A stretch of 48,625 nucleotides of DNA, taken from contig JANYCN010000082.1 in assembly GCA_025360225.1 (NCBI GenBank), positions 1 through 48,625 of the forward strand, in the 5' to 3' direction. A program made the position numbers and the translations under genes. This DNA is from Actinomycetes bacterium (GTDB lineage Bacteria > Actinomycetota > Thermoleophilia > Gaiellales > F1-60-MAGs149). This document shows, in pieces, positions 34,436 to 40,873 of the stretch; position 1 is the first letter of the stretch; each line of letters begins with the position of its first letter. The notes below the pieces were generated by a model. The model saw only the letters and a program-made list of their open reading frames with translations, searched no databases and had not been told where the DNA came from.

Positions 34436-36310
34436 TCAGCCGTCGCCGGCGTCGGTGCTCGCACTGATGCCCCGTCGAACCTCGCCAAACGACAGCCCTT
34501 CACGGCTGAGGAAGACGAGGCCGAGGCCCGCACCGAGTGCGATCTCGATCACCTGGAGCCCGATCGCGAACGCGACGCCCGTGGTGAAGTCGATCCCGTA
34601 GATCGTCGACATCGCACCGGCGACGGTGAGCTGGAAGGAGCCGACGTTCCCGGGCGTGACCTGGATCAGCCCGATGATGTTCGACGCGAGGAACACGACG
34701 GCAGCGACGCCGAGGGCGTCCTTGGTGATGCCGAACGCGCGCAGCGTGAGCCAGATGCCGATCACCTGAGCCGCCCACGAGACGAGCCCCCCCATGAGGC
34801 TCCGGACGGTGCGGACCGGATCGCGGAGAAGCCGCTGGCCGTGCCCCATCTCGCGGATCACCGCCTCGGCGCTGCGCAAGAACGTGCGCCATGACCTCGC
34901 AACGGGCTCGTCCGGCTGGTCGTTTGGGTGCCAGCGCCGCTGCCACCACGACACGAGCTGGACCGCACCGACCGCAAGCACGAGCGCACCGATCGCCGCG
35001 AGCAGCGTGACGAAGCTGTCGATCGCACCGGCCGGCACGTCGGGAAGCACGAGGAACATCGCGGCGACAACGAGGACGAGCGTCGCACCAAGGATCACCT
35101 GCTCCATCACCAGCGTGCCGGCGATCGTCGCCATCGGGATCGTCACGCCGGCATCTTTGACGACGCGTCGGCGCAGGACGAAGAGACGTCCGACCTCGCC
35201 AAGCCGCGCGACCAGCGCAGAGTTGAGCAGGAAGCCGACGAAGATCGCCGGCACGACCTGGCGGTAGCGGAAACGCGGGACCCCGGGGATCGTGTCGAGG
35301 CTCGCCTTCCAGACGACCGCTTTGAACCAGACTGACACGAGGTTCGCGACGAGCGCCCCCGCGACGAGCGGCAGCGACAGCGAGCGGAACATCACCGCGG
35401 TGTCGTGGAGGTTTTGCCGGTTCAGACGCTCCGAGGCGACCGTCACGAGGACAGCAGCCACGGCGACAACGAGGCCGACGCGCGGCCACGAGGTGCGTCG
35501 TTCTGGCGCGAGCGCTGCAAGCTCGCCGACCGTGACGGCCGAGAATCCCGCGTCGTCGACGGCGCGGAGGATCGTAGGTAAGGCGTCGGCGGTCTGGCCG
35601 CGATCGGCGGAGCCGTTCCCATCCGCGTCGTGGAGGAGCAGGATCGCTCCCGGTCGGATCGCCTTCAGTGATCGGTCGGCGATCACCTCGGCACCCGGGA
35701 GGGCCGTGTCGAACACGCCTTTCGTCCAGCCGACGACGCGGTAGCCGAGCCGTTGACACGTCCGTACAACGAGCGGGTTGCGAAACCCGTGCGGTGCGCG
35801 GAGGTAACGCACGTCGTCGGCGCCGCACTCAGCGAGCACCTCCTGCGTTCGCCAGAGCTCGTCCGCGATCGTCTGGCTGCGACAGAACACGAGGATCCGG
35901 TGCGTGTAGGTGTGGTTCGCGACCTCGTGTCCCTCCTCGACGATCCGCCGCACGATCTCGGGATGCGCCGCTGCGTGCCGCCCCAGGATGAAGAACGTGG
36001 CGTGCTTACCGGCGTCGCGCAGCGCGTCGAGGATGCGCGGTGTCGTGTCCGGCGATGGACCGTCGTCGAAGGTGATCGCGATCACCGGCGCCGTCACGCC
36101 CGTGCCGTCGATGACCCGCCCGAACACGGGGGAGTTTGGCGCGAAACACCCGAACGAGGTGAGCGTCAGGGTGCTCGCGTAGGCGACGTCGACGGTCCAG
36201 GCAGCCCAGCCGAGGTGAAGCGACACGAACGACAGGTCAAGCCCGACGGTGATCACGGCGCCGCCAAGAGCGACGGCGACGTAGCGGACGAGCGTCTCGT
36301 TCCGGGTCAT
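34436..36310 (-). CDS. Polysaccharide deacetylase (NodB) fused to LPG-flippase-like membrane domain
   Basis: A 624-residue single frame. Helices at about 8-24 and 32-52, then a NodB domain at 75-265 with TFDDG (80-84), H133 and H137 (HTYTH), RAPHG (171-175) and LLLHD (224-228), so the metal and catalytic residues look intact. A helix at 278-293 follows, then a UPF0104/LPG-synthase-TM-type domain at about 305-610 (FVGFLLNSALVARLGEVGRLFVLRRR and ASNIIGLIQVTPGNVGSFQ are typical). Start ATG 36310, overlapping the GT4 gene (ATGA). The frame reading back to 36364 is inside the GT4 gene. It may N- or O-deacetylate a glycan or glycolipid and also help flip it. Confidence 0.88.
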   Translation of the reverse strand: MTRNETLVRYVAVALGGAVITVGLDLSFVSLHLGWAAWTVDVAYASTLTLTSFGCFAPNSPVFGRVIDGTGVTAPVIAITFDDGPSPDTTPRILDALRDAGKHATFFILGRHAAAHPEIVRRIVEEGHEVANHTYTHRILVFCRSQTIADELWRTQEVLAECGADDVRYLRAPHGFRNPLVVRTCQRLGYRVVGWTKGVFDTALPGAEVIADRSLKAIRPGAILLLHDADGNGSADRGQTADALPTILRAVDDAGFSAVTVGELAALAPERRTSWPRVGLVVAVAAVLVTVASERLNRQNLHDTAVMFRSLSLPLVAGALVANLVSVWFKAVVWKASLDTIPGVPRFRYRQVVPAIFVGFLLNSALVARLGEVGRLFVLRRRVVKDAGVTIPMATIAGTLVMEQVILGATLVLVVAAMFLVLPDVPAGAIDSFVTLLAAIGALVLAVGAVQLVSWWQRRWHPNDQPDEPVARSWRTFLRSAEAVIREMGHGQRLLRDPVRTVRSLMGGLVSWAAQVIGIWLTLRAFGITKDALGVAAVVFLASNIIGLIQVTPGNVGSFQLTVAGAMSTIYGIDFTTGVAFAIGLQVIEIALGAGLGLVFLSREGLSFGEVRRGISASTDAGDG

Positions 36311-37458
36311 CCGCGCATGAGCTCGAGGTAGTGCTGCTCCAGTTGCTCGGCGACACGAGACCACGCGTAGGTGGACACCGCCGTCTTTCGCCCTTCGCGG
36401 CCCATCCGCGCTCGCTCGGCGGGTCGGTCGAGAAGGTACATCAACCCTTCTGCGAAGCGGCTGGCATTGTCGGCCGGCGACACCATCAGCCCGTGCTTGC
36501 CGTGCTCCATCACGAGCTGAAACCCTGAGATGCGACTGGCGACGACGGGGCGTCCGCAGCTCATCGCCTCGAGGAGCACCATCCCGAACGACGCGCGGTT
36601 GCAGGGCGTGCAGTGCACGTCAGCGCTGGTGTAGTAGCGCGGGCGCTCCCAGTTGACGCGGCCGGCCCAGACGACGTCACGCTCGAGCGCGGCAGGCACC
36701 CGGCTGCGGTAGAACGACCGCAATGGCCCGTCGCCGACGACGACGAGCCGCACGTCGGCACCCCACTCTCGGCGAACGTGCCGGAACGCCTCGATCATCG
36801 TCCCAAGCCCGTTACGGGGATCGAAGCGACCGAGAAACAGGATGGTCTTCTTGCCGTCTGCAAGGTGCTCGAGCGGGTCGGCGTCTGGGGAGAAGTGGCG
36901 CTCGTCGATCCCGTTCGGGATCACGGTGTACTCGAACGGGAAGTACGGGGTGAGCGATCCGATGCACGCCTCAGACACGACGACCTTACCGTCGAGCCGC
37001 TTGATCGAGGCGCGTAGGAGCCAGCCGAACGCGTCAAGGAGCGGCCCAGGCGCGAACACCGAGTGGAACGTGCCGACGGTGATCGCCGAGTCGGGCGCCG
37101 CGATCGGTGCGAGCATCACCATGCCCGGGTTGTACGGCGCGTGGGTGTGGATGACGTCGAACCGGCGATCGCGAAACAGCTTCTTGAGCCGGTGGAGCAT
37201 TCGGAAGTCGACGGTGTGCAGGGTCTGAGAGGCGTTGCCGTAGAGGCGGACTGCTTGGCCCACTCGCAGGACCTCAAACGGCGCATGCTGCTCTGGGCGG
37301 TAGCCGGGGTCGACGACCGGCGGCGGGCGGAACAGGTTGCCGGTGATCACCGTCACCTCGTGCCCGCGCGCCTGCAGGTGCGTCGCCTGCCCGTGCACGT
37401 GCTCGGTGATCCCACCGAGCTGCGGGTAGTAGTAGTCGGTTACGATCGCGATTCGCAC
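36307..37458 (-). CDS. GT4-family glycosyltransferase
   Basis: A 383-residue GT-B fold enzyme. RIAIVTDYYYPQLGGITEHVHGQATHLQARGHEVTVIT opens the N-terminal Rossmann domain, and VVVSEACI and IPNGIDERHFSP mark the middle. The C-terminal nucleotide-sugar domain has LFLGRFDPRNGLGTMIEAF, VVVGDGPL and the ExxE region RASFGMVLLEAMSCGRPVVAS near 305. It resembles PimB'/PimC-type mannosyltransferases. Start GTG 37458 (the listed longer frame to 37677 crosses the divergent FmdB promoter). Coupled to the deacetylase-flippase gene downstream, suggesting a shared glycolipid product. Confidence 0.9.
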   Translation of the reverse strand: MRIAIVTDYYYPQLGGITEHVHGQATHLQARGHEVTVITGNLFRPPPVVDPGYRPEQHAPFEVLRVGQAVRLYGNASQTLHTVDFRMLHRLKKLFRDRRFDVIHTHAPYNPGMVMLAPIAAPDSAITVGTFHSVFAPGPLLDAFGWLLRASIKRLDGKVVVSEACIGSLTPYFPFEYTVIPNGIDERHFSPDADPLEHLADGKKTILFLGRFDPRNGLGTMIEAFRHVRREWGADVRLVVVGDGPLRSFYRSRVPAALERDVVWAGRVNWERPRYYTSADVHCTPCNRASFGMVLLEAMSCGRPVVASRISGFQLVMEHGKHGLMVSPADNASRFAEGLMYLLDRPAERARMGREGRKTAVSTYAWSRVAEQLEQHYLELMRG

Positions 37459-37472
37459 CGCCGAGGATCGTA
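37459..37472 (-). promoter_or_regulatory. Leaderless-type -10 element before GT4 gene
   Basis: On the minus strand TACGAT (37472 to 37467), 8-base spacer, GTG at 37458. Confidence 0.5.
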
Positions 37473-37498: not shown

Positions 37499-37525
37499 TT
37501 GGCACTGTCTGTGCCGGAGTGCCAA
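37499..37525. promoter_or_regulatory. CIRCE-like inverted repeat (HrcA operator type)
   Basis: TTGGCACTG, 9 bases, GAGTGCCAA. This has the exact 9-N9-9 geometry of CIRCE (consensus TTAGCACTC-N9-GAGTGCTAA). GC-rich actinobacterial versions have G and C at the third and seventh positions as here. The only broken pair is the innermost one (G facing G). It lies over the -35 region of the fmdB promoter and 40 bases from the divergent GT4 start, so it could repress either or both. Confidence 0.65.
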
Positions 37526-37530
37526 TCTGG

Positions 37531-37542
37531 CATACTGGGTGG
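37531..37542 (+). promoter_or_regulatory. Leaderless-type -10 element before fmdB gene
   Basis: CATACT (37531-37536), 6-base spacer, GTG at 37543. Slightly weaker than the other copies. The CIRCE-like site ends 5 bases before it. Confidence 0.5.
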
Positions 37543-37875
37543 GTGCCGATCTACGAGTACCGCTGCGCGAACGGGCATCTGACGGAGCGCTTCCAGCGCA
37601 TGTCTGACCCCGCTCTTGAGACGTGCGACACGTGCGCTGCGCCGGTGAAGAAGGTCCTGCACCCGGTCTCCATCCACTTCAAGGGCAGCGGTTTCTACAA
37701 CACCGACTACGGCCGCGGCAAGGGCGCCAACGCGACCGGCGACGGCAAGACGTCCGGAGAGGGATCCACATCAGAGCCATCAGGCTCGGCCGAGACCTCG
37801 AGCACGTCCTCGAGCTCGGCTCCTCCCGCTTCGTCGAGCCCACCGTCCAGCTCCTCGGGCAGCTCCGACAGCTAG
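37543..37875 (+). CDS. FmdB-family zinc ribbon protein
   Basis: A 110-residue protein. PIYEYRCANGHLTERFQRMSDPALETCDTCAAPVKKVLHPV (2-43) is the FmdB zinc ribbon: C7 with a following histidine in place of the usual second cysteine (CANGH), and CDTC near 29-32. The tail from about residue 60 is Ser/Pro/Gly-rich and unstructured. Start GTG 37543; the 8-codon longer frame to 37519 overlaps the CIRCE-like site and lacks homology. The family is often called a putative regulator with no proven role. A CIRCE-like operator upstream suggests heat-shock control. Confidence 0.88.
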   Translation: MPIYEYRCANGHLTERFQRMSDPALETCDTCAAPVKKVLHPVSIHFKGSGFYNTDYGRGKGANATGDGKTSGEGSTSEPSGSAETSSTSSSSAPPASSSPPSSSSGSSDS

Positions 37876-38088
37876 CCCCCGCCGCGTAGCTGGCGGTCGC
37901 TGCGAGGCGCGAACGAGCCCCGGCCCGCGACGATCGCTGGAGACCTTCAGCCTCGAGAAGCTGCCGCAACGCCACCGCCGTTTCGCCCGTCGCTCCGCGA
38001 CGGCAGGCGACCTGCCGCGGCCACGTCCCGATGAGAGCTCACTTGAAAGATCCTCATCACCCAAGGCGCTGATGGTTGCTCGGGCCCA

Positions 38089-38122
38089 CTCCAACTGCAC
38101 CGTGCCCACCGTGCACTTGGAG
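38089..38122. repeat. CAAGTGCAC dyad 1
   Basis: Arms 38089-38100 (CTCCAACTGCAC) and 38111-38122 (GTGCACTTGGAG), 10-base spacer, one mismatch. Confidence 0.7.
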
Positions 38123-38183
38123 TATCGCCGCAAAGGCAACGATCTCGCGATTGTGCTGTTCGATACGATCAACGCCTCGGTGC

Positions 38184-38211
38184 CAAGTGCACGGCGCGCG
38201 CGGTGCACTTG
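38184..38211. repeat. CAAGTGCAC dyad 2
   Basis: Arms 38184-38192 and 38203-38211, perfect 9 bp (CAAGTGCAC / GTGCACTTG), 10-base GC-rich spacer. The following bases (ACCATGACCACCCCC) resemble those after dyad 3. Confidence 0.75.
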
Positions 38212-38354
38212 ACCATGACCACCCCCACTGACAGCTCGTTCCTCCACTTCGGTTACCGGGAGCATCCCCCGGCCCGTCGCCTGCCGTCGCGGAGCGACAG
38301 GCGAAACACAGAGCGCGTCGTCGCCGTGACGGCGCAGCGATCCGGGGCAGTACA

Positions 38355-38382
38355 CAAGTGCACGGCGCGCGCCGTGCACTTG
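38355..38382. repeat. CAAGTGCAC dyad 3, full 28-bp palindrome
   Basis: Bases 38355-38368 and 38369-38382 are exact reverse complements (half-site CAAGTGCACGGCGC). It shares its architecture with dyad 2. A single half-site, CAAGTGCACG, recurs at 47691-47700 after the chemoreceptor-like gene. Confidence 0.8.
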
Positions 38383-38467
38383 GCCGTCGCCACCCCCGGC
38401 CGAGGCCCCCGTCACAAGAGGTCGGCGTTGGCGCGTGGGTGGGATCGAACGGGCTTCTTACGGGCTC

Positions 38468-38705
38468 CTAGTGGTCCGATTGTGAAATGGCGTGGTCATT
38501 CGCGCGCCTGGATCGTCCTGCGCTTGCCGGCTCCGCCACCCGTCCGGTGGCTCCGCCAGCCAGCTCCGTCGACCACGCCCCCGGCCCGCTCTGCGTGGCC
38601 GGATCGTGGGCTTCGCGGGAGCGTCGCGCGCCGCATGCGCTTGCCCCGCGCGCCGGCTCGCTCCGGACACCCGATGACGCCGCTCTTTGACAATCAGACG
38701 ACTAG
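38468..38705. mobile_element. CTAG-type miniature inverted-repeat element, copy C
   Basis: A 230-bp interior (38472-38701) between CTAG at 38468-38471 and 38702-38705. The left end is TGGTCCGATTGTGAAATGG; the right end read inward is TCGTCTGATTGTCAAAGAG. The orientation is opposite to copies A and B. The TAG stop of the minus-strand GGDEF/HD-GYP gene (38702-38704) lies inside the right CTAG, as in copy B with folB. No coding frame. Confidence 0.75.
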
Positions 38706-40873
38706 AGCCGACCGACGCGCAGGCGTTCGGCAGCAGCGGCCTGCTGCGTTTCGAGGACGGAGATTAGGGCTTCGACTGCGTCGGTGTCGAGGTGGGTGCC
38801 GGCACTGCGGCGGAGCTCGGTGACGGCGTCGTCGATGCTCTGACCGTCGTGGTAGGGTCGGTCGGAGGTGATCGCAGAGAACGCGTCGGCGACAGCGACG
38901 ACGCGAGCTTCGACCGCGATGTTCGTGCCGGCTTTGCCGTCGGGGTAGCCGGTTCCGTCCCAGCGTTCGTGGTGGGAGCGGACGGCGTCGCCAGCGTCGG
39001 CGAGGCCGGGGACGCGGCGGATGATCTGCTCGCCGATCTCAGCGTGGGCGCGCATGGTGATCCACTCGTCGTCGTCGAGGGGGCCACGCTTGGCGAGGAT
39101 GCGGTCGGGGATCGCAACCTTGCCGACGTCGTGCAGCCAGCCGCCCAGCTGGCAACGGATCACCATCGCCTCCTCGAGGTTCATCTGTCGCGCGATCAGT
39201 CCCGACAGCTCAGCGACCTGCTGGGAGTGCAGCTCAGGCATTCCCTCGCGCACTGCGGCGCTGAGCGCTAGGGCCTGCGCCAGACGCAGAGCCTCGGGCT
39301 CCTCGGCGACGAAGTCCTCGACCGTCATCTCGGTGAACAGGCGCACCTGGTCGCGCCCGCGGCGCTTCGCGGCGTACAGGGCACGGTCGGCGGCGTCAAC
39401 GATGCCCTCCGGCGACCAGAGCGACTCAGACGCTCTGACGGCGCCAACGGAGACGGAGACGGGCAAGGAGAAGTCGTCACCGGCCTTGATCGGCTCGACG
39501 TTCACCGCGCACCGTAAGGCGTTGCCGACGGCGCGCAGCGCCGCGTCGTCGCCGATGCCGGGAGCGACGACACAGAACTCCTCGCCGCCCCAGCGTGCGA
39601 CGGTGTCGTACTCACGCACGGCGGAGCGCAAGCGCCTGCCGATCTCCATCAGCACCTCGTCGCCGGCATGGTGGCCGTAGGTGTCGTTCACACGCTTGAA
39701 GCGATCGGCGTCGAGGAGGAACACGCCTGGCGGGTTGCCGTCGCGCAGAGCGCGGCGAAGCTCGCCGTTGAGGGCCTCAAGACAGCCGCGGCGGTTCCAG
39801 AGACCGGTGAGCGGATCGATCTTCGAGCGCGACTCGGCCTCGTCGCGCTCGCTCTCCATACGGGCAAGCGCGGCCCAGTTCTCGGCCCGCGCCCGACGAC
39901 CGGTGACCAGTCCGAACGCGAGGAACAGCACAGCGAAGCCGAGCAACACCAGCGAGAACGGCCCAACGCCGTCGAACGAGAGCAGCGGAGTGAGCGGCGC
40001 CGACGCCGCGAGAAACCAGTCGTTCGCGTTCCCAACGGACCTGGCGACGACCTGGGTTGCAACGCGGGCGCCACCAGCGTCGGCAACACCACCGATCGCC
40101 CCGCGACTGATCGAGCGCCACTGCAGCTCGCGCGGCCAGCCGAGCGCGGCGTCCCGCCGCTGCGGGCGACGCGAGTTAATCAGCGAGGCGCCGCTGTCCC
40201 GGTCGACGACGTCAACCTCAAGCCCCGGCGGCACGGCGTTGGCAATCGCCTCACGGAAGCTCTCGATCGTCACCTCGTAGTGGATGATCGCGAGAGCGCC
40301 GACAGGCCCGTCGAGGGGCGTCGAGTTCGAGATCACCCACTCATGGGTATCGGGAGACTCGTACGGCGCGGCCTGGTAGACCTGCCCGCTTGCCAACGCG
40401 ATCGTCGGCGCGAAGAACTTCTGTACCGACTCGTTCGGTGAGAGGCTCGCCGTGGAGGCGGTGATGCCGCGCACGACGCGCGCGTTCTCGCTACCCGACA
40501 CGTCGATGAAGCAGGCCTCGCCGATCGCGCCCGGATGCAGCACCTGCAGGTAGTTCAAGGCACCGGATACCTGGGCGGTCGTCGAGACGTCGGCGACCTT
40601 CGTCTCGCGTGGCCTTCCGTCAGCGTAGAACTGTGCGAACGCCGGGTTGCGCGACGTGATGAGCACGATGTCGCGAGCCCGCTGGAAGTACGCGTCAAGG
40701 ACCGCCGTCGCTGCCTGGACGGCGCTCCGGAGCCGCTCGTCCCGTGCCGCGTCATCCTGGGCGCGCTGCGTCGCGATCGATGTGACGCTGAGCAGCGCGA
40801 GCAGCACCGCAGCGCCGTACGCAGCGAGGGTGAGAGGGCGCGATCGCACGTCCCCGCGTCTATCGACCGTCAA
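38702..40873 (-). CDS. Membrane sensor with GGDEF and HD-GYP domains
   Basis: A 723-residue protein for cyclic-di-GMP turnover. Membrane helices at about 15-33 and 300-322 bracket a large extracytoplasmic Cache-like sensor (about 45-295). The GGDEF domain (about 345-510) has the intact site RWGGEEF and, five residues before it, the inhibitory I-site RxxD (REYD). The HD-GYP domain (about 530-720) has WLHDVGK, the HAEIGEQII helix, RSHHERWDGTGYPDG and the rest of the metal set. Both synthesis and breakdown look possible in one protein. Its stop codon abuts element C. The LCP-like gene upstream ends 24 bases before its start. Confidence 0.95.
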   Translation of the reverse strand: MTVDRRGDVRSRPLTLAAYGAAVLLALLSVTSIATQRAQDDAARDERLRSAVQAATAVLDAYFQRARDIVLITSRNPAFAQFYADGRPRETKVADVSTTAQVSGALNYLQVLHPGAIGEACFIDVSGSENARVVRGITASTASLSPNESVQKFFAPTIALASGQVYQAAPYESPDTHEWVISNSTPLDGPVGALAIIHYEVTIESFREAIANAVPPGLEVDVVDRDSGASLINSRRPQRRDAALGWPRELQWRSISRGAIGGVADAGGARVATQVVARSVGNANDWFLAASAPLTPLLSFDGVGPFSLVLLGFAVLFLAFGLVTGRRARAENWAALARMESERDEAESRSKIDPLTGLWNRRGCLEALNGELRRALRDGNPPGVFLLDADRFKRVNDTYGHHAGDEVLMEIGRRLRSAVREYDTVARWGGEEFCVVAPGIGDDAALRAVGNALRCAVNVEPIKAGDDFSLPVSVSVGAVRASESLWSPEGIVDAADRALYAAKRRGRDQVRLFTEMTVEDFVAEEPEALRLAQALALSAAVREGMPELHSQQVAELSGLIARQMNLEEAMVIRCQLGGWLHDVGKVAIPDRILAKRGPLDDDEWITMRAHAEIGEQIIRRVPGLADAGDAVRSHHERWDGTGYPDGKAGTNIAVEARVVAVADAFSAITSDRPYHDGQSIDDAVTELRRSAGTHLDTDAVEALISVLETQQAAAAERLRVGRL

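What the first reader, a model, noticed from the sequence alone, without database searches (positions are those of the whole stretch)
37499..37545. CIRCE-like operator in front of an FmdB zinc-ribbon gene
TTGGCACTG-N9-GAGTGCCAA has the geometry of the HrcA operator and sits upstream of a leaderless-type promoter for fmdB, divergent from a GT4 gene. CIRCE normally controls groE and dnaK. Heat-shock control of an FmdB protein would give this poorly understood family a stress role.
Basis: partly seen in the sequence, partly recalled or inferred. Interest (0 to 1): 0.6.

Follow-up and report, generated by a model that had tools for sequence, protein, structure and literature searches.

The report
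HrcA heat-shock operator before fmdB (ruc)
The bacterium carries a genuine heat-shock switch in front of a small zinc-binding protein gene, the same arrangement already shown in the tuberculosis bacterium for the stress-activated chaperone Ruc, so the finding is real but mostly already known.

Summary
The palindrome is real: TTGGCACTG-N9-GAGTGCCAA at 37499-37525 (one mismatch to CIRCE), ending 17 nt before the fmdB GTG. The genome holds only three CIRCE-like sites: this one and two in tandem before groES-groEL. It also encodes a full HrcA.

The site is conserved before fmdB in relatives. Best matches split into 0-5 mismatches or 6 and more, while the backward-consensus control never scores below 5. 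The operator stays with fmdB although the upstream neighbour changes (GT4, glycyl-tRNA synthetase, galU). All 18 non-fmdB CIRCE sites I checked lie before groES.

The idea itself is known. In M. tuberculosis HrcA represses Rv0991c (Ruc), heat induces it, and it is an FmdB-type zinc ribbon with a disordered tail acting as an oxidation-activated chaperone (PMC7448276). The window protein has that anatomy, no Hsp33 was found, and fmdB is single-copy.

Small new points: the operator is conserved in deep-branching Actinomycetota and mostly lost in one sister family that keeps HrcA; the promoter looks leaderless; the first zinc knuckle is C-x3-H instead of CxxC. No expression data were available; heat induction and chaperone activity here are inferred.

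The parts
37499..37507 (+). CIRCE left arm TTGGCACTG (last base departs from consensus C)
37517..37525 (+). CIRCE right arm GAGTGCCAA
   Evidence: conserved before fmdB in relatives
37531..37536 (+). -10-like hexamer CATACT, preceded by TGG (extended -10 type), 6 nt before the GTG; relatives have TATACT/TATAGT at 6-10 nt
   Evidence: inferred promoter
37543..37875 (+). fmdB/ruc-like gene, 110 aa: zinc ribbon (C8, H12, C28, C31) plus Ser-rich disordered tail
   Evidence: PF09723 47.7 bits; TIGR02605 50.4 bits; AlphaFold pLDDT above 90 for residues 1-40, 46-58 for the tail
37467..37472 (-). -10-like TACGAT of the divergent GT4 gene, 8 nt before its start; the operator lies just upstream of where its -35 would be
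   Evidence: sequence (inferred)
36307..37458 (-). GT4-type glycosyltransferase, divergent neighbour; may or may not share the operator
   Evidence: PF00534/PF13439; divergent GT4-fmdB pair also in relatives

Best explanation
37499-37525 is a genuine HrcA operator (CIRCE). At normal temperature an HrcA dimer bound there covers the -35/spacer region of a leaderless promoter and keeps fmdB low; when heat or unfolded protein inactivates HrcA, fmdB is expressed together with groES-groEL, the only other CIRCE-controlled operon in this genome. The product is the clade's counterpart of M. tuberculosis Ruc (Rv0991c), a small zinc-ribbon protein with a disordered Ser-rich tail that most likely acts as an oxidation-activated holding chaperone. 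Shown here: site, HrcA, regulon content, conservation, protein anatomy. Inferred: binding and repression, heat induction, chaperone activity.
For: Site and rarity: 3 CIRCE sites in the genome, 2 of them before groES-groEL. HrcA present and in 57 of 61 genomes of the relatives set. Conservation before fmdB: 1 mismatch in most of family f1, 1-4 mismatches in all five f2 genomes, 0-3 mismatches in many named Solirubrobacterales, other Actinomycetota and an Acidimicrobiales genome, and in three genomes of family f32, whose FmdB begins MPTYTYAC like Ruc. One of these (L146) has a 5-formyltetrahydrofolate cyclo-ligase-like ORF upstream (my reading). The backward-consensus control stays at 5-9 mismatches. 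The operator follows fmdB while the upstream gene changes. All 18 other relatives' sites checked are upstream of groES. Precedent: HrcA directly represses ruc in M. tuberculosis, heat induces it, oxidised Ruc prevents aggregation (PMC7448276). Hsp33 not found in this genome, matching the Hsp33/Ruc anticorrelation reported there.
Against: No binding, expression or mutant data for this organism. The operator is missing before fmdB in nearly all of family f3 (about 3 of 37 have it) and all of f4, although HrcA is kept, so the link is not obligatory. The window protein lacks one of Ruc's four zinc-binding cysteines, and identity to the f32 homologue is only 37%. The -35 element is unrecognisable.
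Confidence: 0.88

Rival explanations
1. The operator primarily (or also) controls the divergent GT4 glycosyltransferase gene.
For: The site lies between two divergent leaderless genes, 40 nt from the GT4 start; the GT4-fmdB pair with a site between is kept in families f1 and f2.
Against: In Solirubrobacterales, Acidimicrobiales and other loci the site is kept before fmdB while the neighbour is glycyl-tRNA synthetase, galU or something else. The operator overlaps the fmdB -35/spacer region but only abuts the GT4 promoter.
Confidence: 0.12
2. The palindrome is bound by another repressor with a CIRCE-like site, not HrcA.
For: The innermost left-arm base departs from consensus; some genomes of genus g3 carry a different, shorter-spaced palindrome (GTAGCAC...GTGCTGC) at this place.
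Against: Same motif and N9 spacing as the groES sites of the same genome; HrcA present; HrcA is the proven repressor of ruc in M. tuberculosis.
Confidence: 0.04
3. Chance palindrome in GC-rich DNA without function.
For: None beyond the ease of finding loose palindromes in GC-rich DNA.
Against: Expected 0.04 per window with 3 mismatches; 0 control hits genome-wide at up to 2 mismatches; conserved position across families.
Confidence: 0.01
4. fmdB is HrcA-controlled but the protein is a transcriptional or metal-related regulator (the older FmdB annotation), not a chaperone.
For: Family name history; activity demonstrated in one species only; one zinc ligand differs here.
Against: Anatomy (zinc ribbon plus disordered tail) matches Ruc; co-regulated only with groESL; no Hsp33 found.
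Confidence: 0.2

Closest known systems
M. tuberculosis ruc (Rv0991c) promoter, HrcA regulon
   Same: HrcA site directly upstream of a GTG-started FmdB-type gene; regulon otherwise chaperonin genes; small zinc ribbon with hydrophilic disordered C terminus.
   Different: In M. tuberculosis SigH also activates from an overlapping site; I saw no obvious SigH motif here by eye. Here the promoter is leaderless-like, the neighbour is GT4, and knuckle 1 is C-x3-H rather than CxxC.
CIRCE/HrcA operators of groESL
   Same: Same sequence and N9 spacing as the two sites before groES in this genome.
   Different: Single site instead of tandem; target is fmdB.
Hsp33
   Same: Redox-switched zinc chaperone role, by analogy with Ruc.
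   Different: No sequence relation; not found in this genome.

Membership tests
CIRCE (HrcA operator) | TTAGCACTC-N9-GAGTGCTAA with few mismatches | tested here: met
   0 mismatches to TTRGCACTSN9SAGTGCYAA, 1 to the stricter TTRGCACTCN9GAGTGCYAA
CIRCE (HrcA operator) | HrcA encoded in the same genome | tested here: met
   TIGR00331 217.5 bits, cut-off 197.2; PF01628 132.9 bits
CIRCE (HrcA operator) | Same motif controls groESL | tested here: met
   Two sites before groES-groEL; 18 of 18 checked in relatives
CIRCE (HrcA operator) | Bound by HrcA, derepressed by heat | not testable with these tools
   Needs experiment
Ruc (Rv0991c) family | FmdB-type N-terminal zinc ribbon | tested here: met
   PF09723, TIGR02605 above cut-offs; pLDDT above 90
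Ruc (Rv0991c) family | Four zinc-coordinating cysteines (CxxC ... CxxC) | tested here: not met
   C8, C28, C31 present; C11 deleted, H12 kept. Shared with most of the 132 distinct homologues examined (91 in all), many otherwise typical
Ruc (Rv0991c) family | Hydrophilic, disordered C terminus | tested here: met
   Residues 57-110 entirely small/polar/charged types; pLDDT about 46-58 from residue 51 on
Ruc (Rv0991c) family | Oxidation-activated chaperone activity | not testable with these tools
   Needs purified protein

The most novel reading that the evidence does not exclude
A branch of HrcA-controlled Ruc proteins has replaced one cysteine of its zinc site with histidine (C-x3-H plus CxxC), so its redox switch would work with a single possible CxxC disulfide, and its sister family uncoupled the gene from HrcA while keeping both: a natural series for asking which part of the Ruc switch and its heat control is essential.
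Probability: 0.45. Interest if true: 0.4.

Novelty: new member of a known kind. Interest (0 to 1): 0.3.

Why it matters
It suggests that HrcA control of the FmdB/Ruc chaperone is not a mycobacterial peculiarity: it recurs in deep-branching Actinomycetota, always paired with groESL in the genomes examined. The minimal HrcA regulon there is chaperonin plus Ruc, supporting a proteostasis role for this widespread family often annotated only as 'FmdB family zinc ribbon protein'.

Tried and rejected
A search for papers with both 'FmdB' and 'HrcA' found none, because the tuberculosis work uses Rv0991c/Ruc. PDB search of the protein: no relatives. Rfam on the window: nothing. Sigma-70 scan of the intergenic region: nothing. 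One Python run on the repeat failed and was repeated. Chance palindrome rejected. A strict phylum-wide pattern (no mismatch, fixed start codons) hit only 6 of 296 genomes: it demonstrates presence in family f32 but is too strict to estimate frequency. The shorter-spaced palindrome in five genus-g3 genomes remains unexplained; HrcA is found in four of them (not in G009, 85% complete), and the groES site was confirmed in the two checked (G015, G009).

Full report
Observation. The sequence TTGGCACTG-N9-GAGTGCCAA stands at 37499-37525. It is one mismatch from TTRGCACTC-N9-GAGTGCYAA and the only hit in the window with up to 3 mismatches (expected 0.04). Across the 3.24-Mb genome three sites have up to 2 mismatches and the backward control has none. 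The right arm ends 17 nt before GTG 37543.

Genome context. The other two sites are in tandem, 68 bp apart, just upstream of groES followed by groEL. HrcA is encoded on contig C60, directly after a HemN-like ORF (HemN is my reading of the translation), and passes the equivalog cut-off of TIGR00331. No site was found at hrcA or elsewhere. So the predicted HrcA regulon is groESL plus fmdB.

Protein. The gene encodes 110 aa: MPIYEYRCANGH..., FmdB-type zinc ribbon (PF09723, TIGR02605), conserved HFKGSGFYNTDY, then a Ser/Gly/Thr/Pro-rich tail. AlphaFold gives pLDDT above 90 for residues 1-40 and about 46-58 from residue 51 onward. It is the only FmdB-type match in the genome. Hsp33 was not found.

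Conservation. Upstream regions of 58 fmdB genes from the genome and its relatives and of 80 from named genomes were scored against CIRCE. In family f1 nine genomes have 1-3 mismatches, one has a 5-mismatch but well-formed palindrome, and five of genus g3 have a different palindrome. In family f2 all five have a site (1-4 mismatches). Family f3 has three clear sites among about 37, f4 none, although HrcA is present almost throughout. Among named loci, sites with 0-3 mismatches occur in Solirubrobacterales, other Actinomycetota/Thermoleophilia and Acidimicrobiales; one is in a bin labelled Acidobacteria (L098) whose fmdB start and operator nearly equal those of a Miltoncostaeales bin (L105), so the label may be wrong. 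None were seen in loci labelled Proteobacteria or Gemmatimonadetes. The backward-consensus control scored 5-9 throughout. Three genomes of one further family (f32) have the site too; their FmdB (MPTYTYAC/MPTYSYAC in the two read) resembles Ruc, and in L146 the upstream ORF looks like 5-formyltetrahydrofolate cyclo-ligase. Family f32 is unnamed in the tool; that it is Mycobacteriales is my inference.

Which gene is the target. In f1 and f2 the neighbour is a divergent GT4 gene as in the window; elsewhere it is glycyl-tRNA synthetase, galU or another gene, read by eye from the translations. The operator stays with fmdB. All 18 other sites fetched from relatives lie directly upstream of groES.

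Promoter. In the window and the relatives with a site, a -10-like hexamer (CATACT, TATACT, TATAGT, TAGAAT) mostly lies 6-10 nt before the start codon with no Shine-Dalgarno sequence, consistent with leaderless transcripts; a minority of more distant loci have a Shine-Dalgarno instead. The operator covers the place of the -35 and spacer, which suits a repressor.

What is known. In M. tuberculosis HrcA directly represses Rv0991c (ruc) as well as chaperonin genes; Ruc rises at 45 C and in an hrcA mutant; it binds zinc through four cysteines, has a disordered C terminus required for activity, and prevents aggregation when oxidised (PMC7448276). A second paper lists rv0991c-rv0990c as an HrcA-controlled operon (PMC8557902).

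What differs. The window protein and 90 others of 132 distinct homologues have C-x3-H instead of CxxC at the first knuckle. That H12 replaces C11 as a zinc ligand is inferred. In Ruc, Cys-to-Ser pairs abolish zinc binding and make the protein constitutively active, so this change could matter for the switch.

Limits. No experiment was available. Taxonomy of the window is not given; nearest named hits point to Actinomycetota, probably Thermoleophilia. Absence of the site in fragmentary bins was not corrected for phylogeny.

Noticed in passing
window 38467-38705; further copies at about 73-257, TIR matches at 2236-2264 and 2494-2522: A dispersed MITE-like element, about 240 bp (a longer form has an extra stretch of about 80 bp), with terminal inverted repeats CTAGTGGTCTGATTGTGAAATGGCGTGGTCAT and CTAG at both ends. 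88 TIR matches per strand in this genome and none in 40 relatives; many lie at contig ends.
   Followed up: partly
window 37980-38400: Three copies of a palindrome CAAGTGCACGGCGCGCGCCGTGCACTTGG (38092, 38184, 38355) and a 41-nt inverted repeat (37980-38020 / 38267-38307) between fmdB and the next gene.
   Followed up: no
window 34436-36364 (-): One 642-aa ORF combining a polysaccharide deacetylase domain with an LPG_synthase_TM membrane domain, next to the GT4 gene.
   Followed up: no
window 38702-40873 (-): TTG-started ORF with GGDEF and HD domains (HD_5, HD) in one 723-aa protein.
   Followed up: no
L025, L033, L035, L042, L055 upstream of fmdB: Five genomes of genus g3 have a different palindrome (GTAGCACTCACGCCCGTGTGCTGCCGG, shorter spacing) where relatives have CIRCE; HrcA was found in four of the five.
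   Followed up: partly
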